The notes below the pieces were generated by a model. The model searched no databases and had not been told where the DNA came from. It saw only the letters and a program-made list of their open reading frames with translations. A stretch of DNA of 64,000 nt from Cladocopium goreaui (lineage: Eukaryota; Sar; Dinophyceae; Suessiales; Symbiodiniaceae), in NCBI GenBank assembly GCA_947184155.2, contig CAMXCT020000449.1, positions 95,168 through 159,167 of the forward strand, given 5' to 3'. The translations under genes were made by a program, and so were the position numbers. Below are positions 11,727-63,623 of the stretch, in pieces; position 1 is the first letter of the stretch, and every line of letters starts with the position of its first letter.

Positions 11727-11885
11727 TCAATTCCATGACCACACAGAGGAAGGAGAACTTCCTTTGGCGTACTGCGAATCGTCGCTGGAATTGGCGGGCA
11801 TAGCCCCCGTGCGCTCTAGCAAACCACTGGAAACTGGCCCCAAGATGGCTGAGAAACACTGTCGGGTTCGCGCCGAAAATACTGG
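11727..11885 (-). CDS. Glucan synthase terminal exon 42
   Basis: 159 bp: [20 protein letters not shown], then [32 protein letters not shown] and TGA at 11,727-11,729. Ser-rich, likely cytosolic end. Acceptor CACCAG, in phase with exon 41. Confidence 0.72.
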   Translation of the reverse strand, partial: PVFSARTRQCFSAILGPVSSGLLERTGAMPANSSDDSQYAKGSSPSSVWSWN

Positions 11886-14290
11886 CTGGTGGGCAGTTCC
11901 ACCCATTCCAACCCATTCCAATCATATTGGCCTACTGCAAATCATCATCAGCCTATCGCAATTTCCATGGAAGATACCAAGAACAGAGTGCCGGGAGAAA
12001 TGTCAACATTGGGGTCCTGCCAAGCCTAACGAACCAATGGCTGTTGTCATGTTTTGGTTTAGTATGGTATAGGCTGTTGCGACCCATCCCGCCATGCTTT
12101 GCCTGATTTTGCGCATTTGGATTTGCCAAGCCCGTGGATTTTTAAAGCCATTTGAGTTTTCGCTTCCTCCAAAATCTACCTTCTGGTAATGACTGACATA
12201 GCTATTGAAATGGCCATAGAAATAGCTGATTTATATACCCATGAAAAAAGGTGGATCTTTCCATAGACGATTCAAATCTTGGCATCTGAGTTCCGATCTG
12301 ACTAGATCCCATGATATCCCATGTCAAGACGCAACAGAATGCCCACCACGAAAGACTTGTGCCAGCCCATCAAGTGGAACTTCCACAGCAGCAAGCCGGT
12401 CTCTACCTCAGTAGCGACGACCTGGCGAACTGAGCATCTATAGAGTCGCCCTAAATACATGGGTGCATCACTTTTCCTATTGAACATGGTGATTTATAGT
12501 GGATTTACCCAACAAATTGGTAGTTAAGACGGGTGATTCACAATAGTTGCATAGATCAGGTTGCGTGAATCACTCATCTGAAATAAGGCCTTCCATATAC
12601 TGTAGGCGATGTTCCAAACAGTGTTCCTCTCTTTAGCTGAATCCAGATGATGATCCATTGTGTCCCCGTAATATCCCCTTCTTAACCAATTGTGTTGGCT
12701 AAGTCACCATGTTTGATGCGGACCAACAAATGAAACCAAATTAAGACCCACCCCAAACCTTCATGATTGCTTCTTGATCCCAGAAGGGAATGTACTGGCC
12801 AACACATGGGGAAGATTTGCCGTCCAAAAGGGATTGAAGTCACATTTGAAACGGCCATTGATGACCCCATCCCCAGAGCAGCACCATCAATTCACATCTT
12901 CCTCTCCCCAAACAAATATTAGGGATTGTCACGGGATTGTCTGGGTATACTATATATTAATATTTATATACATATATATATACGATTATATAATTATATA
13001 AATATATGTACAAAAATAATATTATATATATATATGTATACAAACACAATATAACACCCCTAGAAGTTCGATAAAGTTCGTAACACCAGAGATTTCACCC
13101 CGAGCTACAGGGACCAGTACTATCACCAGGACCATGCTCAGCCACACGTGCAGCTCCTGGCGTAAGAAGTCCAACAATGGCTTAAGGCGCCAAGATAGAA
13201 ATCGATTTACCATGATTTACCATGATGAAACCTGCGGATTTTTCAGAAATTTTTTCCATGAAAAAAATTGCACCCAAAAAAGAACCCGGGATTCAGTAAA
13301 ATATGATTCATTCGCCACATTTTTCCTTTTCAACACCGGACTCTCACGAGTTGATTGGGATCAACAAAAGCGCACCTTCTTTCGACGAAAACTCAAAGGG
13401 AAATCTTCCAAGGTCACAGTTTGTCCCGGAAGTAGCACATCGCCGTTCTTTTTCCACACTTCATAGGTTAAGGCCTGGCGGTGGGGCCTTGTTGGTGACC
13501 GAAAGTGGTGCATTTTGGAGTGCCAAAATTTTCCAAAATAGCAAGTCTGAAATATGATCCAAGCAAAAGTAGCATCCATGATGTTTAGCAAACAACGGGG
13601 TGTTCCTAGGTGAACTTCGGCAGACGCCTGGGTGTTTTCACGAAGTCGGCTGACACTTGGATCGTGGTGAACCATTTTCATAGTCCGGAGTGCAAGCATC
13701 AAATGTTGGGATATACATATGTAGTCTGGCTACAATGGGATACAATGAGGTCTGTAATGCTAAATCATATTAACCTAGTACTGGGGATATAATGGGGATA
13801 TGCTGGGAATATACATGGAATGTAGCAATGGTAAGACCAACTGGTGGGGGCTACCCATTTTGGATAACCTCATTTGGTACCCCAAGATGAATAACCGATG
13901 ATAACTGGCATCTTGGATTGGATGCCAGTCATCTCAACCACCTAGGATAGCCATCGATAGCCATCCTTCAAACTGGGTCTTTCTCAACCAATCAACTGAT
14001 TCTTTTTCATGACTGCATCTTTTTCCCCATCATTGGTGGTGACCAAACATGGGGAGCTCCAAATAGCACCATTTCCCTCACCGAAACCCACACATTTTGG
14101 ATGTCCACCACGGCGCGAAGTGGCCTCCATCAGCTTCTTGTCCTGCCCCCCAGATGGTTCCCACTTGGGGGATGTCAAGTGTATAAGGAGTATATGGGAA
14201 GTATCTAGTTTACAGGGAGTGAATGGGAAGTATTTAGGGAGTGTACATGAAGTATATTCATATATATATATATACAGTTCTATCTATCTA

Positions 14291-14340
<50 letters not shown>

Positions 14341-17300: not shown

Positions 17301-20300
17301 CCACTATATTTTCGTCAGCTTTCCAACTTTTCTATCATCTTTTGGGGCTCGAAAAACATCTCCCCACCCCCCATGGCATCCCGTTGCCGACCCCGCCGAA
17401 GCTCACACCTCGCCGTCCGCAAAGTTCACCACGTCGCCGGAGCGCGTGCGCACCGTGCGGGTCTCGGAACCCATGGGGATATCATGGGGATCTGTTTGTG
17501 GAATATCAGCAACATCATAACATCATAACTGGTGGTTGAGCCACCTAATATATAATAATCATTAATGGTTAATATATAATAATCATTAATGGTTATTATA
17601 TGGTTAATGATGGTTAATAATAATCTGGTTGGTGGTATAACATATACCCTCCAGTAAATTAACATAGACCCTGCCAGATAGGGGTTGGAAGACTAGTTTC
17701 CACTAGCAAAATTGGCCATTTTCAGGGTCTATGTTAATTTACCAGAGGGTAACTGGTTGGTGGTTTCAACCCCAATCTATCTTGGATGATTATTCCCAAT
17801 CGATGTTTGTGGAATATACCCTCTGGTAAACGTTGACATAACTATGGAAAATCACCAGCTCCAATAGGTAAATCAGCAACATCATAACTGGTTGGTCAAC
17901 TAATCATCAATCATTGTTGTGGCCATAATCTGAATCATAATATTGATAATATATCATGAATCACTGGTTGGTGGTTGAGCCACCCCTCCGAAAAAGATGA
18001 AAGTCAGTTGGGATGATGACATTCCCAATCTATGGAAAAATAAAACATGTTCCAAACCACCAACTGGTCATAACATACCATGGGAATATCATAAGATATC
18101 ACTGTGGTGTGTCAAAACCTCTTGTTCCCACACTGATGGAAGAAATCCTGCACCGCCTTGGATGGTTGAAACATGTTGAAACCCTTTATTGGGATGTTTA
18201 GCATCGTTTTCAACTGGTGCAGGATTTCGCAACCATCCACCGTATGACCGAATATAAGCAACAATCACGAAATATGGTTTCCCGGTTTGGACAATACATG
18301 GATCATTGACAGAAAGAAACTCAGTTTATCAAATATAATAACGATGTACCACTGAAAGTTAGCTTTTTGGGAACCCCCCGATGAAGTTTCAGAGAAGGCC
18401 AAAAGAAAACCGATGGGGTCACCTGCTTCAGGGTCACCGAAATCGGTGTTCGGTGCTGGATCCGAACCTTTCTCGGAGTATCCCCGAAACTTCGCTACAA
18501 ACAACGGAATCACGTAACTTGGGATATGGGGTCCCTAGAAACTATGGCTATATATCCACTCAGTTCACAGGCACCCCCAAGTGGTCCCGTGATGTCCCGT
18601 GTCCAAGACTCCCTAGCTTCTCTTGCGACGGTTTCCATGAGATTCGCATCTCCACTCCTCCAACTCCATGGTCCAAATGCCGTGCACGGCCTAGCTGCGA
18701 TTCTCCGAGAAAAACATGGGCGAAATGGATTCTGACATTGTCCGAAAGTGGGATACATCATGACCATCATGATTATATCCTTCATTGCCATATCATCCTG
18801 AAAATCCATCGGAAATCCATGGAATTAGGGTCGGACCATTTTCAGATCAAGCAAAAGGATGATTAACCACTCCCCATTGACCAATCCAATCGGATCTTGT
18901 TGCAATTGGATCCCCACTTTGCCGAATTTTTTATCTGATCTCCTGCTTTTCAGAATATTTTTCTTATAACATCCCCATTCTTCACGTTTTTTTGGGTTCG
19001 ATGGACAGATCCAGCCCCGCCTCGTCCTGGTGCTCCTGACGTCTCAAGAACCAACCCATGACGGAAAGCGCCTCGACGCCGGGCCATTGAGGTTTCGGGC
19101 CGGTTTCGGGCCGTTTCGTAGCATACTTGATGAGGATGTCATAGGATACACAAACACATAATATATATATATATATCATGGTAATTTATAATAATTCACT
19201 AACCTGAATAGTTCGGCCATTTTGGGATGATTCCCCTTACTAACTATGATTTCCAGTGAGGTCGCAGTGAGGTCGTTATAATTTACACAGATAGATAGAT
19301 AGATAGATAGGTAGGTAGATAGATAGATAGATAGATATATATATAACCAACGACGTCATATGGTCTGTCCGAAACTGAGCCTCAATGTTCTAGCAATTCT
19401 TGGGTAGTTTCTCGTGACGCACATTGATAAAGTTAGACTCCAATGGAACCTGTAGGAAAGGAACCACCCTCGGGGGAAATGAGGATAATATGCGAAAAAA
19501 ACATGGGAACAGATTACGTGATATTACGTGTGACTATCTGCGATTACTTGAAAACTACTAATGAAACAGATTGGGAAGACTATTAAAAGGAACATCACCG
19601 CTCTCGATGTATCTAAGGTTGCACGCTATTTTCATATATTTTCATCTGAGTCATTTCAGCCATGTAGCGATGGACTCTGTGCAGTGGGTTAAGCTGCGGA
19701 GAGTAGCTGCGGATAGTTGCTGCTAGCAACGTTGAAAGAATTGGAACCTTCAAAGTCAGATGCAAACTTCTGCGATAAAAATGGTCTGTCGAGCCTCTCC
19801 CTAAGTTGTTAGCACCTAAATGTGTAATAATAATAATAATATATATATATATATTATATATAATATATATATTATATAATATATTATATGTGTATATATA
19901 TATACAGGAAGCACCAGGTGTCCCCTCCATCGCCGGGAATACCCCCATCAATTTGCCATGGCACTGCAATGAAAATCATGGTGGCGAAAATGGGTGGCAC
20001 GATGACCATGCCAATGCTTTGGAACTGTCCACCTCGGCTGAATGTATTGGTCTTCCAAAAGGATCAAGAGCCGTCTCTTTATATACAATACACGACATAC
20101 ATACATTGCATATGTGTAAATAAGTGATAAATAATCATATATAATATATTATATATATATATATATATTACGCACACATCGTGCCATGTGCATATGCAAA
20201 AAATATGTCTTTAGATTCAGAATCAATATGTCCATATTATGTATAGTATACATACATGCAAATGCGCATTTACCAAAGTCTGCACGTGTGCTTTCTTTTT

Positions 20301-23300
20301 TAACAATGTGGCATGTCAATACCTCGAGCATTCAGCATTAAAGTTCATACTCGATCCGCGTCCAGGCACGACACGTTGGTGACTCCAACAATGCAAAAAA
20401 CGCTCTCTTCAACATAATGACTTAAGGATCAGCATTTCTCTCGAGCGGCTTCCTCAGAGCCGTGTCAGCTATCATCGATGATCCTTTTCTACAAAACATC
20501 ACAAAGACCTTTCATTTATTCCACAAATCAATACCAACATGGCTAAAAAGAGGATTGGTCGGAAGATAGTCCGCATCTGAATCTATGGGTTTATCATCAC
20601 TGGTTGGTGGTTTCAACCCCTTTGAAAAATATTAGTCAGTTGGGATTATTATTCCCAATATATGGAAAAATAAAACATGTTCCAAACCACCAACCAGATC
20701 ATATTCCCTAAAAAATCATTCTGTTGGGGCGGGGATCCCCCATTTTCAGACACACCGAAATCACGAAATCAGGGATCCGGCCTTCAAATATCACGGTGAG
20801 CAAGTGGACCTGAGCTACAGTAAATCACGGCCCCCTAATGTATGGCACTTTGAACGGGTAGTTTGATCGGAAATTTCCCAGAAGAAATGGAGATTTCATG
20901 GGATTTTATGGGGATTCATAAGATGTAACTAACCAACAATATGATTCTAATCACACTGTTCAAATTTAACACCCCACATCAAAACCATGTTTTTTTAGAG
21001 ATGAAACCACATATTGGGGACGATAGAACGGGGGTGCTTAATATGAATGGAGGATGGGATTATAGGAATCATGAGTTGAAAATCTGTCTGAAGATTGGGA
21101 AATGAACTCGCCTTAAAATCACGGCACTGTTGGATAACATGATCGAGCACTTCCTTGAGACATAACAAATCCAAAAGCAAATGGAACTTTTTTCACCAGA
21201 AAAATCACAGTGCTGCAAATAGACAAATACATTCCAAACATGATTATCCCATTTCAGAGGATGATTTCCGATGGTTTTTCTCCAGAAAAAATCGGGATTT
21301 CCCAAAGTCCCAGGCCTTCTGATTGGCCACGGTGTAAAGGCAACCGATGAAGAGAGCACGCTTCAGCACCTGGACATGGGAGGTACAATAGATCAATAGT
21401 ACTATTTTCTATAACGATTCATGGTTTAGAATAACTATTCAAAAATATGGTTTATAATTGTAATAAATAGTTATAGTAATAGTATATAGTGCCTTCGTAG
21501 TAGTAATAGTAAATACTAACAGTAGCCGTCTCCGGAAATCCCCGTGGCCTAGCCACGGAGGTTTCGTTCGCTGGGAAAAGCATCGAACTCAATGGGTGAT
21601 TTTCCGGCAAACCATATTTGATTACGGGGGGTAACCAATATTACCAGTGATTAACTACTAATATTCATCGTAGCAATCAACTATTAACTATTTGCGTAGA
21701 AGTATTAAATATTACCATCGCTACTAACCACTATCGTTAAAATTACCGATCAATAGTACTAGTTATAATAGTCTATTACTGTAGCTACCTCCAAAGTATA
21801 GACATATCATGGACGATCCCCCCCACCAGAAAATCCACCAAAATCTTGGCCATAAAAAGTGATGTTTCTTGAGGCTTTGCCTAGACCAAAAGACCAAAAA
21901 ACTGTGTCTCCATCAACCTCTTACCCTCTGTAAACCAACATAACTATGGAAAATCACCATTTTTAATGGGAAAATCCACTATAAATGGCAATTTTCAATA
22001 GCCATCATTGTTTACCAGAGGGTACATCCTCCAAAACTACCAAAAAAGCGAGAAACAGTGAGGGACTCAACTCGGGATGGTTCATGACTTTTGGAAAGGC
22101 CGCTCCCCAAATTCATTCACTAGTAAAATTCATCATGACTTCCCTATGGAAAATGGCTTTAAAATGGGAGTAGATACCATCATTCTTGGGCTAAGCCATA
22201 CATAAAACATATATATATATAATCATACATGTGGACCAACCTACATACATAACGCATATATTTGGACCAGGTGACCAGCATTTTCATGGTCCTTTGGCGC
22301 CTCAGTGCTTGATGCTCTCAAGGGCTGATCGATGCAAAGCCGCTCGGTGCTGTACCATGATTTCCACATTTCTCCTGCACGCCACACAGCCCGCAGGGCC
22401 CGCAGGGCTCTTGATCTCGCACACTGATGGTAAAACACTATGAATGGATTGCTGGGGATATAGTTGAATATTTTCTGGTATATATATATATATATCTTAT
22501 GCGCATATGTCCCTAGTGAAAAAACATATTGTTTTACCAATATGGACGCTTTAGCGGGGATAGAATCTAACGGTACGATTTGCTATACGGTTTATTGGGG
22601 ACATAGTGGACGGGGAAAGAAAAACATATATAACACACACTTGATATGATCTGGCTTTTGTGGCGGGTAATGGTACCAAACCTATGGAATACACCTAACA
22701 GAAATGTAGAAATAATATGAAACAATATAATTAGATATCTTTAAATCAGGGCCTAATGTTCTTGCTGTTCACATGTTTTTCAATCTTGAATGGAATGTTC
22801 ATGGGTTTTATAGGGATTTTATAGGGATTTTATAGGTTCAAACCACTGGATTTTGGAGCCTAAAACAAGACCACCGTGAAAACCATGTTTCCCCATAAGA
22901 CGACCGCGCGACGGGGCGACCGCGCGACGGGGCGACCGCGCCACCTCCCTTGTGAAAGAAGAAGTTCTTCCAGTTCTCGAAATCTTCCTTCCAGCCCTTG
23001 CAGGTGAACCTGGGAGGAGCCACCAACATATTACTACAAGCACCACTTAAGTTACAAACAAATCACATTTTTTGAGAAAAAACTGATAAATCATCCAATC
23101 AACATCGGTAACACATATTTTATCCAACATCTTAAAAAAAACATTCTTCCTGACATTTCATCTGCCATCCAATCTCGCAGCTGGTTTCAGCTCGCCATAG
23201 AGTGGCTGTCAGCTTTCGATGATTCGCTACGAAAAATTGCTGGAAGGTATGGTCAAATGGAAACATGGCTGATGTGAAGGAAAGCATGGACCATTTTGCT

Positions 23301-26300
23301 GATTTTATCGAAAGCTATGGTTTTGTAATTTAAATCAATTGTACGATGCAACTTGCAGGGGCTTCCTGTAGATCTACCATTCAACGAATTCTGAGGTTTG
23401 AAGTCTGCCCCCCCAAAAAATGGGCTACCCCAATATCCATTGGTTTCTCGTAGTTTCGCATCTGAACGCCCATCACATATCATAGGGAACATGCTATCCA
23501 AGCAACTGGTACGGATTGAAGATGAAGGGCGACAAGAGCCATGAACCTGACTGCACCACTGCAAAAATCATCTCAATGAAGCTGGTTGTAAACCTTTTGA
23601 TATAGATGGGCTGAGAGAAATCATTCGAAATCGTTTAACTTTGACATTTTAAAACTCCACAAATTTATGGGACTCAAGTCATGCTGCAATGATTTTGCAA
23701 CGGTCCCAACTCCCACACATGGGTTTGTCTTAAAGTAGGGTATCCCCAAGTCGGATGGTTTGGAGCAGGTGGCACGTTGTTTGAATTTATCCCTTCCTTT
23801 TTACAGACGCTAATTAACCATCATTTGATACAATTTCCCCACTTATCAACCACAAAACTCTTCGAATTGTCCAAACGAAACCATTCATAAACTATAATAA
23901 CTCACCCAAATCACTCAGATGTTCCATTTTTTTTCATTTTCACTTTTTTTCCATTGTTTTCCCATAGAAACACAATATTTTCCATTGTTTTCCCATAGAA
24001 GCATTATATTTTCCATTGTTTTCCCATAGAAACACTATATTTTCCATTGTTTTCCCATAGAAACACTATATTTTCCATTGATTTTTAATTGTTTTCCCAA
24101 AGAAACATATATATATATAAACACCATAAGTTAGCCACTACTCCACCACCATCGCCATGGAAATCGAGCAGCAGATCGTCAAGGACACGGCCAGGAGCCA
24201 CCAGCACAGTTTCCCCATCTGGGGCCCTACGTCAAGACCACCTCGCGGAGCAACATTTGGTGAACTGCTGGGGTGAGGAGGATATCACTGAGATATAGCT
24301 GAGATAAATGATAATTGTGATATAAATGACATGGCATGACAGGACTAATATATATATATATATAACACTGATGTAACATGATGTAGCTGATCGAAGGAAA
24401 TTTAGACGTCAAACTTCCGCAATATGGATAAATGGAAAGGCAGAGAGAAGAGAAGAGGAGAGGAGAGGAGAGGAGAGGAGAGGAGAGAAGAGAAGAGAAG
24501 AGAAGAGAAGAAGAGAAGAGAAGAGAAGAGAAGAAGAGAGAAGAAGAGAGAAGAGAAGAAGAGAGAGCATCAGGGAAGAGAAAGAGTGAGAAGAAAGGAT
24601 TTGTGGCTCCGGAGGGTCGAAAAGTAGGCTCGCTAAAGCGGCGGGTGCGGAGCCGTCTGGCCAGATGAGAGATGAAAAATTGCACGCCGTTGTGGCGCGA
24701 AGCACATTTCGATGTCAAAATGTACAAAGCACACCATTCTCGGAGGACGTTGAGCTGTTGAAAAAGTGCACGCAGTTGTGGCAGGAAGCACATTTGGAAG
24801 TTGCGCTATCGAAAAAGCGCACGCCGTTGTGTGGCGCGAAGCACATTGCCAAGTCAAAATGTACAAAGCACACCAGGTTCGGACCACTTTTGGAAGTTGA
24901 GATGTCGAAAAAGTGCACGCCGTCGTGGCGCGAAGCACATTTCGAAGTCAAAAGTTGAAAAAACTGAGGGGGTTCGGAGCACTTTTGGACGTTCGGATGT
25001 CGATTTGAGTGGCCGGCACAACGTGAAGGTTTTGTAGCAGTTTCAAAAGCGTTGGCAGGCGTGGGACATTTGAAGAGGATCTGGAAAGATGCATTTCGCG
25101 TGGCAGGCGCAGTACAAGAGACGCATGAGGTAGATGTGTTAGGAGATCAGGGCGGAGATCTCCTGAGAGGTGTTGCATTTTGGAGCATGAGATCTTCAGG
25201 TTTGCTAAGACGATTTTGCGTGACAGGTGCAACACTTCCTATGACCTGTCTTCACTTTTTCGTGGCAGGCGCAATAGGTCCCCATACCTTATTTTGGCTA
25301 CTGGACATGCCCTTTTGTTGACCTTGAAGCTGCCGCTTTCAAACGAATTTATCTAGACTAAGGGACCTGGCCTTCAAGGATCCCGCAGCTGCTGCTCGGC
25401 TTGTCAGCAGTGCCAAAGAGGGAAATGTCGAACCTGCTCTGCAAATTCCAATGGAGCGGCCTATTTTTTGGCGGTCGTCCTTGAAGACGAAAGCATGGCG
25501 TTTTCCCGGCCAGGATCTAAAAGAGAATTTTCACGAGGAACTTGCAAGATCAGTTCGTGCAATGTTGTTGGCCCGTGTCCCTAGCAGCTCGGCACGACTG
25601 GTAAGGCGAACTTGATCTCCATAGCGATATAGCCAAAACACGCATTCTCGAAGATGCTTCTTTGGCGTCAGTTTCTGACAGACAACTTGTGCAGACCGCA
25701 ATTCAATTCCTGCCAAAGAATCATGCCTACACGAGGTCCCTATTGCGGGCCCTGAGGCCTGGCAGTGTTCTCACTCGAGCGCGATGCAAAGCAGAAGGGA
25801 TTGTTGCCAAAGATGGTAAATGTGAAGGATGCGACCAAAGAGAGGACCACCTTCATTTATTCAAATCGTGTGGTTTCTACGAAAGGAATCGACCTTCAAG
25901 CTTCTTCCATGACACAACGTGGTGTACAGGCATTTTTTCCAGAAGGTGAGTTAATCACCAAGTGGCGGCAGGAAGTTGTCTCTAGGCCTGTTCTTCCCAT
26001 GGATGATTTTTAAGCTTTTGTGCCTGAAAGTCCCATTTTTGTTGATGGCTCTTGTTTTCATCACTCTTGGGCTCCAATGCGATCTGCTGCAGCAGCACAG
26101 TTGTTTCAAAGCGTGGCTGCTCAAAAGCTTATCTCCTACCTTGCCTTGACCAAACAAGCCAACGGGCTGAGATCTTTGCAGTCGTCGCAGCTTTGTGGCA
26201 CTGCGCCGGGAATATCACGATTTATTGTGCGCCTGTAGTCACAACATGGTCAACTTCTTACAACGCAGTGGTTTCTCAAATGGATGTATCACCAATCTTG

Positions 26301-27940: not shown

Positions 27941-28001
<61 letters not shown>

Positions 28002-39249: not shown

Positions 39250-39281
<32 letters not shown>

Positions 39282-39371
39282 CGATGACGAGGACGATGGC
39301 GAGGACGATGACAATGATGATGATGATGATGATGATGACGATGACGATGAAGATGACGATGATGATGATGG

Positions 39372-39407
<36 letters not shown>

Positions 39408-39471
39408 CGACGATGACGAGGACGATGGCGAGGACGATGACGATGACGATTATGATGATGATGATGATGAT

Positions 39472-39506
<35 letters not shown>

Positions 39507-51500: not shown

Positions 51501-54500
51501 ACTCAAGTATTTCAGTGTCTGAATTAGCTTATTGATGCCATGGTAAACTTATCGTTGTTTGGCCCATCGCCATCTCTAAAGCCACATAGTCTGTGTTATG
51601 GGACATAGAAAAATATGCAGAAAATGGATGATATGTAGTTTTTCTGATACCAGAATGGATATTTATATATTATATATATATATATATTTCACCTGATTCT
51701 GGGTTATATATCAGAAACATATTCCAGAATTGCAGCTATGGAACATAGATGAAAACGGCAAATTTACAGAAAATTTACTGCACCTATCAACAAATGGCGA
51801 TTTCCACAGCTGTATCCGTTTACCAAATGTTGGTAGGGAAAGTACGTCCAATAGACTTTCAGGGTATCAAATCACTGGCCATCTCAGGAACCTAAATTGG
51901 AGGTACCTACCATATATAAGGCCTAAATTTCAGGGAATCTCCCCACAAAATATGGCCAAACATATGGTACTAACGAACCTCCATTTTAGGATCCTGAAAT
52001 TCCCATTGAAGTTATGTTTGTTGATTTATAACCCCCATGAACTATACACTTGTATCTACCCTAAACCCTGGTTAAGCCACTTATATCTCAACTGAACGCT
52101 ATCTCGAAGGCCCATCAAATGATATGCCCAAAACTGAGGTATACCCAAGGCTCCAGTTCAAAACAAGACAAAAGGTCTGCCAAGTGGCAAGAGCATCTGC
52201 TCAAAGTAGGCACCCTGATTGGAATCAATGGCCTGTGATCAAGCACAAAAAAAACGGGGTAAGTCCTTTGAGATTGACATAGCGTTAATGGCCTTGAGGT
52301 TGATACTTCTATACTTGGGGAAACTTGAAGATATGCACCGTGAAAAAAATCGTCTATATGTTTCTATATATATTTTTTTCTATCCCATTCTATCTTTATT
52401 TGGATGTTCTATGCCTCATTTCATGGCCAAAAAGTGCCAGGCAAATCATTCAGTGACCGTTTCACAGGCTTTGCTCAGTGCGAACGCTCGACTGTTCATA
52501 TCCCCTGGAACGGCACAGGAACATCCGGAACCCGGAAGAAGAAATATGGCAACAGTACCCACAAAAAATGGGTCTCCTGCAAACGTTCAGATCTGAACTT
52601 TCCCAATCATCCAGTTCTCAATCTTCCCATTGCTGTTTTCCCCGACAACACGGCAGACCTTGGTTGCGTAGTGTTGACAACCCCTTGTTGAGTCATTATT
52701 CAAAGTAGCTCATATAGTATAACCCACTATCCACTCCAATAATGGCTCATAATATATCAACAAGGGGCTTTGAACACTGCTCACGTGGCAAAAACAATGG
52801 ATAAAACCATATAAACCATCAAAACAATAAAGAAACCGTGGACAAAACCATCAAAACAATAGAGACAGCATGTTTTTTTGTTTAAAAAAAACCATGGAAA
52901 ACCAACATCTGCTGAGACTTCTCCAAGGTCAAAATGGGATGTTGCCATAGCCGCCTGGATGATGCTGCCACGTGTATAGATAATCCTAGGCCAAGGCGGC
53001 CGTGGAGGACACTGAAAATCACAGGAATCTGGGCAAATTATGAGAATTTTTACTATAAACTATAATAATTCTACTATAAATTACTGTAAATTATCATGAT
53101 ATCTAGTATTTATGGTATATGATTATTATAGTTTTTGGATTATTATATACGATTTTTTTGATTTTACTGGATATTACTGTAAATAATAATCCATAAAAAA
53201 ATCAGAAGCCGGAAATGAATTAGCCATTTTCTGGTATGAGTCATGTCAGACACGTAAACATCATGTATAGTGAGGTCATCCAGAAAAAACCATCCACTAG
53301 CTGCGACTCACATCGCCAAAAGTCCGAAAGGGTCCTAAAACTGGCCAGCATGTCATGCCGAACCAGAAAAGATCACGTTCAGTATCTTTATGCATCTTTC
53401 TTTAAATCCTTTCTTTTAAAACCATTCCTCCTTTAAGATGGTTATAGTCAACCATGAACCAACCAGCCTGCCGATATCTACACCTTTTCCGAGCGTCCCA
53501 CTGTTCTGGTTGTCGCCCTTGCCATCACCAAGGATGGGAAAGCCTCCGATCGACTGGGATCACTTGATGACTCCCCAGCAACAAGCACTGGCCAGAGCCT
53601 GGAAGCTCCACCCGAAAGCGGGGCTTGCGTTTCCTGGGGTCGTTCTCATCCCTCTCGCAATTGGCGTCGATCAAGCAGCTATAGTAACCTCAGACGCGGA
53701 TCTCCATCGGTATCGCTGAAGTTCTGGCGTCCCGGGGTACCTATATGGTAATTCAACACTTTGCTACGGGAAACTCATATGTTTTAGGTAGATCAGCTAT
53801 AAAATCTATAAATGTGCGATTTTCCACAGCTATGTTATTCATCAACTTGCGAACATGAGAAAAGGGTCATCAGCCAGGGTTAAGCTATAGCAGTTCCCAG
53901 AGGTCATGATGGTTATGTTCTCATCCTACTACAGCGGCAATCAGCATGGATCCAAAACAGAGGTGTCAAGGTCCAAACTGCACATCCTGCCTTTGAAAAA
54001 CCCAAACTTCAAGCAGGAAACAGTTGCAGAAAACAGCACGTTTTCATGGCTTGTCTTTCCAGTTGCACGTTTCAATCTGTCAACATTTCACGAAGTCCGA
54101 CCCCGGCCCCATCCATCAGGTGACGTCTAAGCTGTCGGGGATGCACTGCATCTTCCCTCCAAACAGAGGCCCTCGGTTTGTGCTCGATGTAAGTGATCTT
54201 GAAGCTCCTGGGGAAAATTAGGTCCAACTTCCATCATCCAGTGGTCGATCATCATCATCAGCAGCAGCATCAGCATCATCATGAGAATTATCATCCTAAT
54301 CATCCCCAAATGGCCAAATTGGGGCCCAGCTCCCATTTTCAGACACAATTGTTTCAATTAGAAAGTAACAAATCCAACATTCTGTGGGAAGTTTGTGCTG
54401 GAAAATAGACCGAAGGCCGAAGGTTGGAAGTCGCTGCTGCAAGAACGAAGGATTTTGTCTGCCAAATTCTTGTGATACTTGGCCTCAAAATTTCACCGAT

Positions 54501-57500
54501 TTGGGGATGGCTTTGACCAGACTTTCGGGCTTGGGATGGGCATCTTTGAGTGTTTTGTGCAGGATTTATACGGACGGAACTTGCTGGATTTACATCCAAA
54601 ACATGTGTGGTTTTGCCTAAAAAAATCATGTGCTAATACTGTAAACCCAATCATAAACCAACCATTTGGGGTCCTTTCAACAAATCACCTCAAATAGGCA
54701 TTTTTCCCCAATCATAAAATACCAATTTGGCCCTTGATGACTAAATGAGGCTTTCTGGGGTGTGTTGAATCTTAGTCCCCATGGTCTCGTATAATGATTC
54801 ATGATACTTATGATGATACTTCCAACAAACAATACTTGCTGATCATCATGGTTTCTTGGGTACTACCTGGAGTAGCATAACAATCAAACGTATAATACCG
54901 GATCATTATTGCTAATTGTACTACTATAGTGTTGTTTGTTGTACTACTGATTATTACCAATCATTATTACTTTGGTCATTGTCAATAAAAACAACTGTTT
55001 ACTATAATTATTTAATGATCATTGTGATCTATTATCACTATCAATATCTATTTACAATGATTATTATCAATATATAATTTACTACAGTATACCCTCCATG
55101 GTTTCCATCTGTCATAAAACAAACTGGGTTTTCGGACTGCTTGGCGTGCCCTCTGCCCTTGCGCCTGGCTCACCAACAGGGGAATGTAATCAAAAGGACT
55201 GGTGGTTCAACCATCGAAAATTGGGATATGATGATATACCCTCTGGTAAACTAACATAGCTATGGAAAATCACAATTTTCAATAGGAAAATTAACATAAT
55301 CAACTATATAAATGGCAATTTTCAATAGCTATGTTAGTTTACCAGAGGGTGATGCGTCTATATCCTCATTTTCTGGTGTTCGATTTAAATCAAAATGACT
55401 CAACCATCTATCATAATCATAAGACTTATGGTGTATATCTACAGTAAGTGTATATACGAATGTTCTATATATTCTAAAACCCCACTATATCAGGATTCCG
55501 GATTTCTGCAGTTTTGTGACAGTTTCAGTATCCCATTTTTATTTCTGCGAAAAGGAACCGTAAAAAACAGTACTTACCACTCATGATAGATGGGTCCATC
55601 ATATCCTGCGGGTGTTTGGAGAAATGGAACCGTCCTGACTGACCATTCAAATCCGATTATGATAAATGTTATAGGTTATATATGGTTATATTATATCCCA
55701 GAATCCCGCCGACAAGTAGCAAAAACGAATCCCATACTTGCCAGTCGAAAAAAACATCTTGGGATGGTGCTGCAAGTTGGAATGTTCCGTCAAATTCAAT
55801 CACTTCGAACAGTTCAATCCTTTCAATCCGATCAATTTCACTGACTTTTCCACCATTGTATGCGTTGCATTTTCTATGGACAAAACCTCCATGTTCATCC
55901 ATTTTCTAAAAAGAAGCAAATTAATAGGGATACCCATTAATACCGTTAATAGTTAATACCATTAATAGTCAAGATCATTCATAGTGAATAATATCCACCA
56001 TTTCATAGACATTTTGTCATTGATCCACGTCTCCCACCTATCGAAGCGTTGCAGCAACTGCTCGGCATGTTTGAACTCGTGGTCCTTGAAGTCAGCATAG
56101 CGCTGCATGCAGCCCAGGCAGCTGAAGGCCTTGCGAAACGTCGCGAAACTGGGAAGCGTTGTTCAGCGGAAGCGTTGGGTACATTGGGAGTGCAACATGG
56201 AATGGCGGATAAGATAATTATATATATATATGTATGTATGTAAATATGTATGTACATATATCATATCAAGTACAAAGAATATGACATAGCATATACATGT
56301 CGATATAATATTTGTGATGTAAATAGCATATCAATGTGTATACAGTATAGATAAGTAGCCAATATCAGTGGCTAAACCTATTTTATCACCAGCTCCATTT
56401 TTTGGCTGAAGTGGATAGCCGTTTCGGCACCATACTATGGAAATCCATGCATGGTTGTTTCCCCTTCGGAAAATGATGTTTTCTTTCATGGTGGGTTTTC
56501 CACATCAAACTGTTAGCATTTACCCGCCATGGTGAAACCAGTTCCGATTTGGATCGATTTGGGGCTGAAACAATGGCCCATTGTTCGTGATGACAAGACA
56601 CCCAACGATGGGTCGTGAAGCATCAAATAGCTAGATCTCAATTGTTGAAGCTGTTTTCTTCGACCACCGAATCCCAAATCCCGCCAAGCGGCCTCAGTGG
56701 CATCCCAACCCATCTTCTTGTCCTGGTGAATGTGCTCGACCATCTGATGAAATCGCTCCAAGGCTGGCAAATACAGCCTTGGCTTTTCCCAAATATGGAG
56801 ACGCGTCTTGCGCTAATCTCCGACGCACCAACTCAAATAAATCCAACGCAGTGCTGGAAGAAGCCGGGAAAGCCTCTTCTAGACATTCCTGGTTTAAGTG
56901 TCCGCAAGCGTGACAACAACGTGTGTCGTCCCAGTTCTATCAATTTTTTGGACTGGAACATCCAGATTGAAGGCCATCAAAAGACACCACTGCAACCAAA
57001 CTCTACCATGAAATGGCCAGCTGCGCTCAGAAAATGGATGGGTCAAGAGATGGTTCAATGGTACTGATCCCTGCATCCTGAGATCAAACACCCACCAGGA
57101 GATTCTGCTTTAGTGCTGGGTTTTTGTACTTTGTACATTTTTTGGTCTCTTATTTTCCCACCCCAAACTCCAACAAACTATCAGAAACCTGTCTACCTGG
57201 GCAAAACCTGAACCTTTCGTCATTTTGTGGATGATGCCAGCCAGCGAGGTCGCAACACAATTCAAAATCAGATGAATTATGGGTAAAATCTTGGCTTTCT
57301 GGTGCAAATACATGTGTTTCTAGGAACATAATTAACAATTTTCTGGGACAAATACATGTTGATCCTCTTGCAATACAAAATATATACTTTGTTAAAAATA
57401 CATATGTGTATATAGAATAATACAAATGCATGTGTATTATATATGGGGTTTTGTCTGAAAATAGGGTATGCCCGGTACCCCAAATTTGTTGGTTTGTCAT

Positions 57501-60500
57501 CATTCTCATCATCAAACATGCCATTTACATATATACATACGATTAAATGTATGAGATATACGAGAGTGGGGTCTGTTCCAGTTCTTGGAGACACGCATTC
57601 TGTGGATAGGATCTCGATGATAACCTGTGAAACACAACCACTATGTTCCGATGAAATTCCCATGATATCACCATCAATATCTGGATTAGTCAGAATATCA
57701 CCATCACCATTCCTGTGAGAATAGATCTTCTATATATAGATATATAGATAGGAACCAAATGGACGTATTTACAAAACAATCACCTATAAATGAGGGATTT
57801 TCGGTTGCTATGTGTGATGACAATTCCATGGCTATTCCCTCAATGGAAAAACGCTTCCCCCATCCCAAGAGTAACCCTGGCATACGTCGCACGTGATTTC
57901 CATGACATTTTTCATTAACTATTACAAATACCAATAGAAACTCCATGTTCTGTCATATCCCGATGTTTTTCTTTCCATGTTTCAAGTATGTTCCATGATA
58001 TGTTTCCCTATGAGAGCAATCATCCCATCAAACCCCAACTGAGCAGTGTGACCTACACCCATCGACCGTCATCTCAGTCTCTAAACATCCTGGTTGAGAA
58101 CGGGGTTCCCCATTTGCCGAGTCTGATATTCCAACCAAAACTTGGTTGGTATAGTCCCCAATCCAATCATCAATCATTCACCATGTATCAGTTTTACCCA
58201 CTTGTATCCCCATAGTTGGATTATTCTTGATTAGAATCCCGGTGAAATGAAGAACTAATCATCAACCAACCATCATTTAAAAACGATATTGCCACATGTT
58301 GGATAATTAACAGTTTCCCGAAAAATACCGTTGATGCTTACCATCTGGTATTCAACAGTTTGCCATGGAAAATCACCATGCTATTAATAGGTAAACCATC
58401 TATTTCAACTGGGGCCATCGAAAAACCATGGCGAACTGTTAGTCATAACCAGAGGGTAAATTCCCAAGAATCAAGTATCAAATGATCAAATGCCATCAAC
58501 AGAGGTGGATCGCAACCATTGCCCACCTCTTTTCCTCACGTCCAGGCGCATGCAACCCTCCACGGTCCGCCAAAACGTTTGCGACCGCATCGAGGCCCAA
58601 AGGCCTCAGGGAAATGGCGTGGCGATGACATCCATAAGGTGAGGCCGAAACCATAGGAACATGCTGAATTATAACCATGAAGAATCGGGATACAACCATC
58701 AAGACTGCAGATATAGCCAGCCAAACGATAGCTAAATTGAATTAAATTGATGCACATAAGTTGGCAAACTTTAGCTTTTTTTTCGGGAATACTACGATGG
58801 TGCTGGGCGACAATGAAACCTGCAATGAGCGGACAGTTGAACAAATATGATCACATAGTTTCGTCGGAAACTTCCCTGTTTTTATTGGGGGTAATGGGAT
58901 GCAATGGGGATATGATATAGTATGCTAAAATGGTGGTGTATAGTCGGATTCAAACCAAACAAGTGGAATTCAACTAGTGGCAGGATTGAATCAGTAAATA
59001 CGTGGTGCGACGTGGTATGTTTTAATATGGGAGCAGGGATGTTGTAAGGGGCTCATGGGATGTCATGGGTATTGGGGCTATATCATGAGGTTATTTAATG
59101 GGATATAGCATGATATAGCCAACTTCATGATTTGAGCTGTAGGGTTTGATTTTAAATCGTTTGTGTTGCTGCTCCATAGCTCTGACCAATCGCGGAAACA
59201 GCTCTGAGCTGTGCTGGCTGTCTTGCTTTTTTGGTAAGTACAATCCAAGTGGGTCCAATTCTACTAATTAGGTTCGTGCTCTTTTTGCTTAATAGAAGTT
59301 CAAATCCATGCTCAGAGCTCCTTGTAACCACAAAGCTGAGATTATTCAAGGTGTGATTGGGTTTTCTTATGGGCGATTCTTGCAACCGCCCGTGAAGCAA
59401 GCAGCTCTGCGTTGATCATTCTAGAGCAGATCTCGTAATTTCCCTGGCAACCTTTGTCATCAATGAAAACCAATGCAATCAAAAAATCATCTCCAAAATG
59501 CAAACAATTCCCCAAGAGGTGCCCTACAAAATGCCAAGCCCCCAAGAAACCACAATTTTGCCCGTACATAGAAGCACTACAAAATGCCAAACCAGGATCA
59601 TTTTTTAACGATGATAACATGGTTCTGGTACAAAATCCAAGGTCCAGGATACATATTTTTTGTGCAAGGTACATGTTTACGGTCTGGAGCTGTTTTGTAC
59701 CTATCCCGGGATAACGTATTCCGCAGTGCAAATTCCAACCCCCAATGGGTATACCCCAAAGCAGGCAATTCTAATCGGTGGTTCTTTTTGGATTCACCTG
59801 GGGGATTCGGCCCAACTAAGGAAAATTGAAATTCACCCAGTGAAAATGGTGGTTTAACCTCAAATCTAATGAAAGTTCGGATCCTCAGAGGGGACGATGA
59901 GGATTGAACCAGAACAGTTGGGACTTAAACAGCAGCATAAGATCCGTCACAAATGGACACTTGAAGGATTTTCAACAAGACTTCTAGGAGTGTTCGACAC
60001 AAATTCATTGGTGTTTAGGCAGTGCTGCCTCCACCCTTGTCCCTGAAACCGAATGTGGGTAGCTGATGTTGGGAATATATGGGAATATGACGGAATATGA
60101 CATTTTTTCTTGGATTTCCTGCCACTTTTTAGTATTCCTCCCCAAAAAAGAGAACATCGGACCAATTTCTGAGATGATCATCGGGTCTTGTCGCATTCCC
60201 CTCATGGGAACTGGACAACTCTGCTGGTCCCCGAACATCTTGGTCAGGAGCAACATCAAGCAGGTCTGGTCCAAGGCACAAATGTGCTTCCAGTGTTTGG
60301 GCTGGTAGGCTGCCCTTGGTGAGCAAGATCTGCAAAAACAACGGCGGTCTCAGTGAAATTCAGAAACTAGGCTATAGCAACCCAAAAAAGACATAGAACC
60401 GGTTCAATTGAACACTGGTTAAAAAAATATGAATTGCTATTCTAACGCCTATCCTTTTGGGGGTCGCTATATATTTTCAAGGGATGTTGAAAGCGCCACA

Positions 60501-63500
60501 TACCCGAGATGGCCAATCCAATTGACCAAGCTTGCCATTTTGGCAACCTCAGGTACCTCGTAACCAAGCTTTGTCCAAGAATAGAAACATGCAAGTATAG
60601 CAACAACAAAGGACGCACTCCAAATCGATACAGCACCTGCCTTGTTTCTATCGCTGATGGCTGATCCATTTCCCAATGTTAGGTCAAACAGGCAACGCAG
60701 CCTTCCACCAGCTTCCACTTCCACACATCCCCCTTCTTTAAGCCTTGGGCACCAGTTAGTGCCATAGTCGGGCCAATCATTGAACTGCGACTTCATTCGG
60801 TTGGTGAAAGCCACAAAATCCTCATGGTACCTCCCAAGACACCCGCGCAATTCGAAGTGATTTCTGACGCTTCGGGACGCTGATTCTTCAAAAATGGGAA
60901 TGCAATGCGTATATATAATGGAATATGATGGTGTAGATATATATATAATATATATATATATTTATATATATTTATAATGTATATGTATATATATATATAT
61001 ATATATCCGCCGGCCCCTGCCTAGCCGTAGCCTAGGCGGGGGTGTGCGACAGAGCTAACCCCTTTACAATTCCATCGCTGCAAGGCCGGGACCGAGGAGT
61101 CTATCTGTTACAGGGCTTGAAACTGCCGCTCGGCCCAAGGCCTGGTCCAAGGAATCTATTTTACGGGTCTTGAAGCCAGCCCGGCCCAAGGAGTCTGAAA
61201 CTGCTGTCTGGCACTTTTCGTTCCACTGGGCCCAAGGACGGGCCCAATGCTGGTCGTGATTGCTCTGGTTGTTTCATATTCTGAGCCAGCTCAATCCATG
61301 CCCCCTCCCTTTAAGGGGGGTCGGCGGCACCAGGGCGTTAGCCCTTTTATAATGGTATATACATGTATATAATTAATGAGATTCAGTTTCTGGTAATGCA
61401 ACAGTTTGTGAACTGGAACATTACAATTTTTTAATTGGTAAATCTGATCTATCTGATCTATCTATCTATCTATCTATCCATCTATCCATCTATCCATCTA
61501 TCCATCTATCCATCTATCCATCTATCCATCTATCCATCTATCCATCTATCCATCTATCCACCTATCCATCCATCCATCCATCCATCCATCCATCCATCTA
61601 TCTATGTTAATTTACTGGAGGGTAAAGCTTGTATGCAGTTTTTGCTGATATCTTGGCATACCCTTTCAGCCTTGCAGTCACAACGGCCATGATCTGCCCA
61701 AAGGCGCCAACGGATCAACCGAGCCCTGCCTCTTCTCCAACCAAGCGATCAAGGGAACTGCATCCTGGAGACATTCCGTCATGGTGTAACCAGCAGAATC
61801 ATAAACAGATCGAAACGAAGTGAAGTTAACTCTGCCACATGTTGGCCACATGTTGGCCACATGTTGGCCACATTTTGCCACATTTTGGCCACATTTTGCC
61901 ACATGTTGGCCACATTTTCTCTTGGCACCGTATATTACTAACTATCTTTTTCGGCACCAGCTCTCCTGACTGTGATCCGGATACACATCCTTCGGCTCCA
62001 TCAGAATTTGCTCGCCGTAGTGGGGGATCATCACCTCGCTTTCAAACAGCACAGGGTGCACCCCATGGCCCCATGGAATGCGATGTCGAATTGTGATTTG
62101 GGCAGAAGCTGGTTGGTGGTTTCAACCACCACTCTGAAAAATATGAGTTCGTCAGTTGGGATGATGACATTCCCAATATATGGAAAAATAGAACATGTTC
62201 CAAAGCACCAACCAGCCCAAGTTTGCCCATGATCCGGAGAAAAATGACCTTATCGAGTATACCAGGCGCCATCGCCACTATGTCAACCGGGGTTGTAGTT
62301 TTGATTTGACTCTAGGCAGTTCATCAATGTTCATCATAATTTTCCAACTACATGATCTCCCATGGTCCATCTCCACGCTACATGTGATCACCAGGCTGTG
62401 GCAACCAAACTTCATTCGGCCCGTCCTTTCCGGTGCTGCCAAGAGACGGTCATCCCTGGCACATACGGCGTCAAGTATGGCCGCGGAAGGTGGCTGGAGC
62501 CCAAGTTGCCTCGGGAAAGCCATGGGATTTTCACAAAGTTTGCAGTATGTTTTCCTGCGATTCCCCAAAAAATGGAAGTTAGTAACATCATAACATCATA
62601 CTGAAACTAGTGATGAACGACCTTTCCATCTTTCTTTTGGGGGGGAAATCTATGATCCAATTTCAGGATTGTATATATTTCGTCCATGTTCCAGATCCTT
62701 GGATGGAATTCACCGCTTCACCGCTTCGTGATCGGCCAATCTTGGACGACGACAGGTTGGTAAATTCCCAGCTGGGTAAATCATCTCGTCTAGGTGGCTG
62801 GTTAATCAACCAATTCCCATCTTTCCCGGCTCATCTCAAAGATTCAAATTTCATGAAACATCATCTATCAACCTACCGGTACCATGACAAAACTATCAAC
62901 CTACCAAAACCGTTCACCTACGCCAAGGTTTTCATCTCCCTGTCGAAGTGATGCCAAAACACGTGCCAGGGCGTTCAGCCGCCACTGCACTTCCAAATTG
63001 GAAGGCCAGGAATCACTGGGGATGATGCCTCCGACGAAAAGTTGCGTCATAACCATGTCATAACCATGTCATAACCATGTCATAACCATGTCATAACCAT
63101 GTCATAACCCATAGCCATTTCAGGGTGGGACAGAATGAATAAACCATCAACTTGGGAAAATCCATATTTTTGTGTTACACAAATCCAATGATCTTATTCC
63201 AAACATGGTTTTTCTGATGATTTTTTTGGGAGTCACACCTCATGTTTCTGGTCATTTTCTGGCAGTGGTTGAAAGCTTTGTACTGGTCTTGCCCAATATA
63301 TCCCAATATCATAACATATCATAACTATTTCCCGTTTTGGAAGTGACAACTCTTGTCTATGGTCTATGTCCTTTATGTCCCTGTGGCCCAGCCATCCAAA
63401 AAACATGAGAATCACAATTAACACTCAAATGAGGTGGAAACAACTTTAAACAAAAAGCAGCACAACACATCAGTTTGACTGGTGAAATTCCATGAATTCC

Positions 63501-63623: not shown

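What the first reader, a model, noticed from the sequence alone, without database searches (positions are those of the whole stretch)
11727..63623. A 1,3-beta-glucan synthase gene of more than 50 kb split into at least 42 small exons
The exon chain was built by eye from family motifs, AG acceptors and phase. It sums to 3,615 bases, divisible by three, with no internal stop and all motifs in family order. Only about 7 percent of the locus is coding. The median exon is about 75 bp, down to 31 bp. Gene predictors would probably miss it or split it, because none of the exons is a long open frame.
Basis: partly seen in the sequence, partly recalled or inferred. Interest (0 to 1): 0.85.

Follow-up and report, generated by a model that had tools for sequence, protein, structure and literature searches.

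The report
Giant, many-exon algal glucan synthase gene
A dinoflagellate gene for the enzyme that makes beta-1,3-glucan is cut into about 60 to 80 tiny pieces spread over roughly 120,000 bases, more than twice the length first seen; fine splitting is ordinary for this group, but the size, and how few intron positions it shares with a close sister gene, are unusual.

Summary
The gene is real. It lies on the minus strand and runs off the window. A spliced profile alignment scores 905.6 nats on the minus strand, against 27-49 on five controls. A model built without seven near relatives refinds all 39 strong window exons and matches held-out relatives at 54-71%. The joined protein hits PF02364 (487.6 bits) and FKS1_dom1. 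Eight of nine published Fks1 active-site positions are kept. Introns are dinoflagellate-type (GC/GT/GA-AG|G). Short exons also appear in other GT48 genes of this genome, so the novelty is size and intron turnover: a 50%-identical paralogue fits in 16 kb, with only 4 intron positions coinciding (58 vs 26). In passing: a miniature inverted-repeat element is gene-sense in 28 of 28 copies at three loci. Among the first 100 listed of 18,234 genomic copies, strand changes once in 95 neighbouring pairs.

The parts
62963..63028 (-). exon, strong
   Evidence: gain over best of 12 local shuffles 20.8 nats
62448..62509 (-). exon, strong
   Evidence: gain 20.5
61966..62034 (-). exon, strong; PHYGE motif (Fks1 Y849/E851)
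   Evidence: gain 30.5; alignment to GSC2
61730..61764 (-). exon, strong
   Evidence: gain 18.1
60753..60830 (-). exon, strong
   Evidence: gain 23.5
60280..60314 (-). exon, strong
   Evidence: gain 14.8
58550..58604 (-). exon, strong; [15 protein letters not shown]
   Evidence: gain 37.2
56693..56777 (-). exon, strong
   Evidence: gain 17.3
56038..56129 (-). exon, strong
   Evidence: gain 31.7
54125..54207 (-). exon, strong
   Evidence: gain 32.6
53599..53688 (-). exon, strong
   Evidence: gain 41.9
53498..53543 (-). exon, strong; GKGDNQN (Fks1 K1082/N1085)
   Evidence: gain 38.3
52955..52985 (-). exon, strong
   Evidence: gain 18.8
52189..52232 (-). exon, strong; DSN in place of Fks1 DAN (D1102-N1104)
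   Evidence: gain 41.7
50790..50869 (-). exon, strong
   Evidence: gain 42.2
50240..50313 (-). exon, strong
   Evidence: gain 57.7
49328..49363 (-). exon, strong; RMHYGHP
   Evidence: gain 34.0
48142..48216 (-). exon, strong; ends in the E of the catalytic ED (E1221)
   Evidence: gain 56.0; the intron after it is one of the four shared with C4635
47600..47631 (-). exon, strong; begins with the D of the catalytic ED (D1222)
   Evidence: gain 19.1
46808..46880 (-). exon, strong; KGRDLGF
   Evidence: gain 51.1
45438..45521 (-). exon, strong
   Evidence: gain 43.2
44746..44765 (-). exon, strong (20 bp)
   Evidence: gain 10.5
43746..43798 (-). exon, strong
   Evidence: gain 39.0
43087..43173 (-). 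exon, strong
   Evidence: gain 29.5
42018..42072 (-). exon, strong
   Evidence: gain 18.1
40677..40725 (-). exon, strong
   Evidence: gain 24.0
40385..40434 (-). exon, strong
   Evidence: gain 14.0
39722..39758 (-). exon, strong
   Evidence: gain 23.1
38084..38129 (-). exon, strong
   Evidence: gain 23.4
36821..36888 (-). exon, strong; [14 protein letters not shown]
   Evidence: gain 28.6
35300..35383 (-). exon, strong; followed by an 11-kb intron
   Evidence: gain 26.1
24173..24241 (-). exon, strong
   Evidence: gain 9.1
23507..23546 (-). exon, strong; SPFIFNPY
   Evidence: gain 33.9
22945..23009 (-). exon, strong
   Evidence: gain 28.1
22301..22374 (-). exon, strong
   Evidence: gain 11.8
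12333..12406 (-). exon, strong
   Evidence: gain 13.0
   Evidence: gain 9.8
   Evidence: gain 11.1
7974..8032 (-). exon, strong; HNILIYRDPGG, last conserved block; in-frame stop 22 codons on if unspliced
   Evidence: gain 10.0
   Evidence: does not beat the shuffles (gain -1.0); aligns weakly with P0037
21316..21369 (-). exon, weaker
   Evidence: gain 4.5; the intron after it (model 1586) is at a position shared with paralogue C4635
20782..20809 (-). exon, weaker
   Evidence: gain 2.9
19965..20032 (-). exon, weaker
   Evidence: gain 3.0
19021..19071 (-). exon, weak
   Evidence: gain 0.9
13115..13156 (-). exon, weak
   Evidence: gain 1.9
   Evidence: gain 4.9
   Evidence: gain 3.1
24242..35299 (-). 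largest intron in the window (about 11 kb); holds open frames at 29076-30125 and 30212-31412 that read by eye like transposase remnants
   Evidence: the chain has only an untested 3-bp segment between the two flanking exons; three frames here had no Pfam hit

Best explanation
A single, apparently intact nuclear gene of a Symbiodiniaceae-like dinoflagellate for an FKS1-type 1,3-beta-glucan synthase (GT48). It lies on the minus strand and spans about 120 kb of contig C449, with the window holding its 3' half. About 60 strongly and 19 more weakly supported exons (median about 65 bp) are joined by removing GC/GT/GA-AG|G introns of 55 bp to about 11 kb. By homology the protein polymerises UDP-glucose into beta-1,3-glucan in its cytosolic GT domain and passes the chain through its membrane channel. 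Shown here: exon chain, order, frame, domain and active-site residues, dinoflagellate-type splice sites. Inferred: that all exons are spliced in one mRNA in this species, the enzyme activity, and the 5' and 3' ends. The size comes from many introns at positions where a sister paralogue has none, and from long introns that carry repeats.
For: 905.6 nats against 27.1-48.6 for five controls. 60 of 95 tested exons beat the best of 12 shuffles by more than 5 nats, 19 by less, 16 not. Hold-out of seven near relatives: 39 of 39 strong window exons refound (31 with identical ends); held-out P0087 71%, P0037 68%, P0046 64%, P0038 54%, training rows 42-43% though over longer alignments. PF02364 487.6 bits and PF14288 53.2 bits. 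FKS1/GSC2 PDB sequences E about 1e-90. Collinear with Effrenium P0037 over 1,499 columns (52%) and with a transcriptome protein of another dinoflagellate, P0038, over 867 (55%). 46 introns with strong exons on both sides: 26 GC, 16 GT, 4 GA donors; 43 of 46 AG|G, against 43.6/36.6/19.8% and 96.1% in Cladocopium goreaui (PMC9412976, passages). In a six-frame search the core's 22 pieces on C449 lie in strict order, once each; pieces on other contigs are 32-85% identical.
Against: No RNA from this organism. 16 of 95 tested segments of my chain (5 of 52 in the window) do no better than shuffles, and four were not tested (first, last, and two between very long introns). The aligner favours family-like peptides, penalises stops and prefers AG|G ends, so the Pfam score, the lack of stops and the splice-site tallies are partly built in. 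One 100-bp assembly gap lies inside an intron (98,650-98,749 in window numbering). Start and stop codons are not fixed.
Confidence: 0.93

Rival explanations
1. A decaying pseudogene or dead duplicate, its size a sign of relaxed selection.
For: The gene is far longer than its paralogue (118 kb against 16 kb). It has an A1103S change in the DAN motif. No transcript was available.
Against: No stop in 1,775 codons (stops are penalised by the aligner, but no exon needed one). Eight of nine listed active-site positions are kept; the DSN variant is also in relative P0087. Splice sites score well and GC3 is 69.9%.
Confidence: 0.05
2. Two or more neighbouring genes or fragments chained together by the aligner.
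For: One 100-bp assembly gap lies inside the chain. Two relatives' gene models (P0097, P0105) lie on one Fugacium scaffold.
Against: The order is collinear with single proteins of up to 1,631 aa (P0037, P0039). The core's 22 six-frame pieces on the contig are in strict order and occur once.
Confidence: 0.03
3. A chance chain: with permissive splice rules and 64 kb of sequence almost any protein can be threaded.
For: 16 of 95 tested segments in my own chain, many of them very short, do not beat shuffles.
Against: Controls reach 27-49 nats, not 906. Hold-out identity to unseen relatives is as high as 71%.
Confidence: 0.01
4. Introners (intron-creating transposons) recently split the gene.
For: Dinoflagellates gain introns through introners (PMC11453091, passages). 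Most introns here are not at positions shared with the C4635 paralogue.
Against: Of 808 similarities between different introns, none touches matching intron ends. Terminal inverted matches are no longer than in shuffled pairs (0 of 46 with 8 bases or more). Other genes' introns were not compared. So no recent introner burst is visible within this gene; an old one is not excluded.
Confidence: 0.25

Closest known systems
FKS1/GSC2 1,3-beta-glucan synthase (GT48, PF02364; Saccharomyces cerevisiae, PDB 7xe4, 9wzs)
   Same: Collinear over the GT domain and following part (query 4-674, E about 1e-90). Y849, E851, K1082, N1085, D1102, N1104, E1221 and D1222 are kept.
   Different: A1103 is S (DSN). 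The locus has about 60-80 exons; that yeast FKS1 has no introns is recalled.
Effrenium voratum P0037 and eukprot g11468 (P0087), dinoflagellate FKS-clade proteins
   Same: 52% over 1,499 columns and 71% over 448; same clade.
   Different: The public models are truncated or fused: P0087 also carries PF00909 (ammonium transporter; name recalled), and P0037's tail leaves the family sequence (by eye).
Own-genome paralogue C4635:305,514-321,798
   Same: 50% identical over 1,811 columns, similar length.
   Different: 27 exons with median 142 bp in 16 kb, against 76 with median 65 bp in 118 kb (exons scoring over 6). 4 shared intron positions of 58 vs 26, 0.28 expected.
Plant callose synthases (GSL/CalS)
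   Same: Same family, and also multi-exon: 19 to 47 exons in nine of eleven Prunus mume genes (PMC10748206, passages).
   Different: Outside the window gene's dinoflagellate clade in both trees.

Membership tests
GT48 / FKS1-type 1,3-beta-glucan synthase | PF02364 Glucan_synthase domain | tested here: met
   487.6 bits, cut-off 37.2, profile 3-717 of 819; the protein is model-guided, so see controls and hold-out
GT48 / FKS1-type 1,3-beta-glucan synthase | FKS1_dom1 (PF14288) upstream | tested here: met
   53.2 bits, cut-off 27; its exons lie outside the window
GT48 / FKS1-type 1,3-beta-glucan synthase | Active-site residues ED, K1082, N1085, Y849, E851 | tested here: met
   GSC2 alignment counted by hand (FKS1 number = GSC2 number minus 19) against residues named in PMC12715860 (passages)
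GT48 / FKS1-type 1,3-beta-glucan synthase | DAN motif D1102-A1103-N1104 | tested here: inconclusive
   DSN: D and N kept, A to S; relative P0087 also has DSN
GT48 / FKS1-type 1,3-beta-glucan synthase | 15-17 transmembrane helices and channel | not tested
   no topology or structure prediction made
GT48 / FKS1-type 1,3-beta-glucan synthase | UDP-glucose-dependent beta-1,3-glucan synthesis | not testable with these tools
   needs expression
Dinoflagellate intron-rich nuclear gene | GC/GT/GA donors with AG|G acceptors | tested here: met
   46 introns: GC 26, GT 16, GA 4; AGG 43 of 46; scoring partly favours AG|G
Dinoflagellate intron-rich nuclear gene | DinoSL trans-spliced mRNA | not testable with these tools
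   no RNA; no DinoSL match with up to 5 mismatches on either strand of the 174 kb scanned, as expected if added in trans; the SL letters are recalled
Introner-made introns | different introns alike at their ends, or TIR/TSD at intron ends | tested here: not met
   within this gene only: 0 of 808 similarities at matching intron ends; 0 of 46 introns with terminal inverted match of 8 bases or more

The most novel reading that the evidence does not exclude
After a duplication within Symbiodiniaceae this copy gained some fifty introns that its sister lacks. Its long introns became a landing zone for a miniature inverted-repeat element (r1) that is kept only in the direction of transcription, so that element strand marks transcription blocks across the whole genome: 28 of 28 gene-sense at three loci, and one strand change in 95 neighbouring pairs among the first 100 of 18,234 genomic copies. 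Strand locking would mean either strand-specific insertion or strong selection against antisense copies in primary transcripts.
Probability: 0.3. Interest if true: 0.72.

Novelty: new member of a known kind. Interest (0 to 1): 0.5.

Why it matters
It is an almost worst-case test for gene finding: about 60-80 exons with a median of 65 bp, mostly non-GT donors, and 120 kb. Several public models of its relatives are visibly broken. The gene and its 16-kb sister form a matched pair in one genome for timing intron gain or loss in dinoflagellates. The strand-locked repeat noticed in its introns may matter more than the gene: a transposon-like element whose orientation seems to mark transcription direction over blocks of up to about 1 Mb is a directly testable oddity of dinoflagellate chromosomes.

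Tried and rejected
First profile (36 proteins, P0001-P0036, mostly a CALS12-like clade) gave only part of the chain and junk at both ends (270.6 nats); replaced by a profile of 59 proteins (P0037-P0093, P0110, P0112) from the second search. Long open frames in the window (61 of 120 aa or more): five frames were tried in Pfam and had no hit; the others were not tested. Rfam and tRNA scans of the window: empty. DinoSL: no match with up to 5 mismatches along the contig; two 12-base core matches with one mismatch inside introns (49655 minus, 56400 plus) and two with two mismatches at C6183; none convincing. Introner origin: no shared intron ends. r1 as a structured RNA: 11 copies, covariation term unfavourable (+0.91), 1 of 22 pairs with a double change. 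r1 as a splice ratchet: acceptor-like sites over my threshold in 11 of 24 copies; a donor-like site at the 5' end in all 21 copies that have that end; not pursued. r1 in pieces of GT48 genes on the plus strand: none found in C592, C881, C324 or C912, so gene-sense is tested at minus-strand genes only; C6 (plus block) had no gene that I could recognise in the 10 kb read. The whole-genome DNA search with the r1 consensus was answered empty (it skips very common words). C-terminal frame at 5827-6363 as last exon: undecided. No structure was predicted.

Full report
WHAT WAS CHECKED. The window is C449:95168-159167 of an unnamed 1.17-Gb genome in 6,202 contigs. A six-frame search of that genome with PF02364 gave 27 matches on other contigs and none on C449 at E <= 0.001, as expected if every exon is too short to match alone. 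tblastn of 36 homologues against the window put the best family-like pieces on the MINUS strand.

GENE MODEL. I wrote a spliced profile aligner (codon-level, three intron phases, GT/GC/GA donors, AG acceptors). I ran it with a profile of 59 proteins (P0037-P0093, P0110, P0112) from the second homologue search (120 listed of 1,170 hits), then with splice-site weights learnt from its own confident exons. The chain crosses the right edge of the window. Neighbouring stretches of the contig were fetched and the chain was followed to about 128,065 in window numbering, and on the left to 7974. One weaker segment further right, at 139,353, was left out. The merged chain has 99 segments, 5,325 bp, 1,775 codons and no stop, over 123 kb counting two unsupported segments beyond 7974. 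54 segments lie in the window.

HOW SURE ARE THE EXONS. Controls on the 64-kb window: minus strand 905.6 nats; plus 48.6; reversed 39.2; three dinucleotide shuffles 31.8, 27.1 and 32.5. Exon by exon, the DNA between the two neighbours was replaced 12 times by sequence drawn from its own dinucleotide frequencies. Four segments were not tested (the first, the last and two between very long introns). Hold-out: a profile of 50 proteins without seven of the nearest relatives, with untrained splice costs, refound all 39 strong window exons, 31 with identical ends. The resulting protein is 71% identical to held-out P0087 (449 columns), 68% to P0037 (618), 64% to P0046 (492) and 54% to P0038 (877), but 42-43% to three training rows (about 980-1,030 columns, so over more of the weaker parts). 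A profile-driven artefact should not resemble the unseen relatives most. GC of strong exons is 54.9%, of the locus 42.6%, GC3 69.9%.

WHAT IT IS. The joined protein has PF02364 (487.6 bits) and, from exons right of the window, PF14288 FKS1_dom1 (53.2 bits). Six distinct FKS1/GSC2 sequences in the PDB match the core at E about 1e-90. I counted the residues named in a 2025 review (PMC12715860, passages seen) along that alignment by hand, GSC2 numbers being 19 higher than FKS1 numbers: Y849, E851, K1082, N1085, D1102, N1104, E1221 and D1222 are all present; A1103 of the DAN motif is S. The protein aligns collinearly with Effrenium voratum P0037 (52% over 1,499 columns) and with P0038, a protein from another dinoflagellate's transcriptome (55% over 867). 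In a tree of 53 rows it pairs with P0087 (100/99) inside a clade of six with Symbiodinium, Effrenium and two 'Skav' (Fugacium; name recalled) proteins (98/99), apart from plant CALS and fungal rows. The organism is therefore most likely a Symbiodiniaceae dinoflagellate; I did not identify the species.

INTRONS. For the 46 introns with strong exons on both sides: donors GC 26, GT 16, GA 4; AG|G 43; phases 18/14/14; median 649 bp, range 55-3,041. Cladocopium goreaui has GC 43.6%, GT 36.6%, GA 19.8%, AGG 96.1%, and on average 17.2 exons per gene, exons of 120 bp, introns of 839 bp and genes of 15.7 kb (PMC9412976, table seen). So the type of architecture is ordinary. The extent is not: about eight times that mean gene length and roughly four times the mean exon number. 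The review PMC11453091 (passages) cites a single 26-kb dinoflagellate intron, so the 11-kb intron here is not a record.

COMPARISON INSIDE THE GENOME. Short exons also appear in other GT48 genes here: the aligner gave 32 exons in 9.4 kb at C324 and 40 in 8.8 kb at C912, and 12 each in 10-kb pieces at C592 and C881; these were not tested against shuffles. In contrast C6183 has exons of up to 824 bp. The nearest full-length paralogue found, C4635 (50% identical), packs the same protein into 16 kb with 27 exons of median 142 bp, against 118 kb and 76 exons of median 65 bp here, counting exons scoring over 6. Intron positions (same codon and phase, both flanking exons scoring over 6): window 58, C4635 26, shared 4 (0.28 expected). 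C5672 shares 1 of 19 with 25 of the window's; C4124 shares 0 of 12 with 28 (both only partly covered). Alignment shifts will hide some shared sites (6 lie within 6 nt for C4635, 4 for C5672), so these are lower bounds. Heavy intron turnover follows, its direction unknown. Introns of different position share internal repeats but no ends: 0 of 808 similarities.

WHY IT WOULD BE MISSED. None of the 120 listed database proteins (of 1,170) is a same-species model of this gene; the highest identity in that listing is 64%. A 99%-identical protein was found for the long-exon gene C6183 (P0001), so DNA of this organism or a very close one seems to be in the database without a spliced model of the window's gene. 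Several relatives' models are damaged.

A REPEAT NOTICED ON THE WAY. Element r1: about 106 bp, ends CTGGTTGGTGGT/ACCACCAACCAG, exact 4-bp target duplication in 8 of 17 near-complete copies (17/256 = 0.07 expected). It occurs 24 times in the 174 kb searched (W -20,000 to 154,000, of which 4,240 are N), always in gene-sense orientation, and at two other GT48 loci 3 of 3 and 1 of 1 gene-sense (C5672, C447). A second, palindromic family (r4) has 38 copies, 20 against 18. The 21-base end of r1 has 18,234 exact copies in the genome, 9,105 forward and 9,129 reverse, backwards control 0. Among the first 100 listed places (five contigs), 95 neighbouring pairs share a contig and only one pair changes strand (counted by hand from the listing; a few copies lie in short tandem arrays; the other places were not seen). 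Symbiodinium chromosomes consist of alternating unidirectional gene blocks (PMC8110479, passages), so r1 strand probably follows transcription. Gene strand was known only at minus-strand genes, and no other asymmetric repeat was run as a control, so this is a strong lead, not a result. My searches for a published report of it (listings only) showed none that I recognised; Roy et al. 2023 on dinoflagellate introners is cited from the review only and was not read.

VERDICT. Observation confirmed and extended; interpretation supported; the gene is a new member of a known kind with an extreme but explicable architecture.

Noticed in passing
window 17964-18067, 20600-20697, 35919-36018, 38670-38782, 44317-44428, 62109-62215 and others; genome-wide: MITE-like element r1 (about 106 bp, 12-bp inverted ends, 4-bp target duplications) lies gene-sense in 24 of 24 copies along the contig stretch and 4 of 4 at two other GT48 loci. 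Its 21-base end has 18,234 exact genomic copies; among the first 100 listed, strand changes once in 95 neighbouring pairs.
   Followed up: partly
window, e.g. around 12174, 41458, 50080; 74861 in window numbering (L012): Second interspersed family r4: about 106 bp, near-palindrome TTTACCCTCTGGTAAAC..., 38 copies with no strand preference.
   Followed up: partly
window 29076-31412, minus strand: Open frames inside the 11-kb intron that read by eye like a DDE-type transposase remnant; no Pfam hit.
   Followed up: partly
window 52189-52232: The catalytic DAN motif of Fks1 is DSN in this gene and in relative P0087, but DAN in P0037.
   Followed up: no
L013/L014 (C6183:158506-163811): A divergent GT48 gene of the same genome keeps several exons of 400-824 bp, in sharp contrast to its relatives.
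   Followed up: no
-4139 to 0 in window numbering (L010 end): A 4,140-base run of N ends exactly at the window's left edge; a 100-base gap lies at 98,650-98,749 inside an intron of the gene.
   Followed up: no
window 2088-2744, 27775-28335, 38817-39657: Long microsatellite and minisatellite tracts that give spurious long open frames.
   Followed up: no
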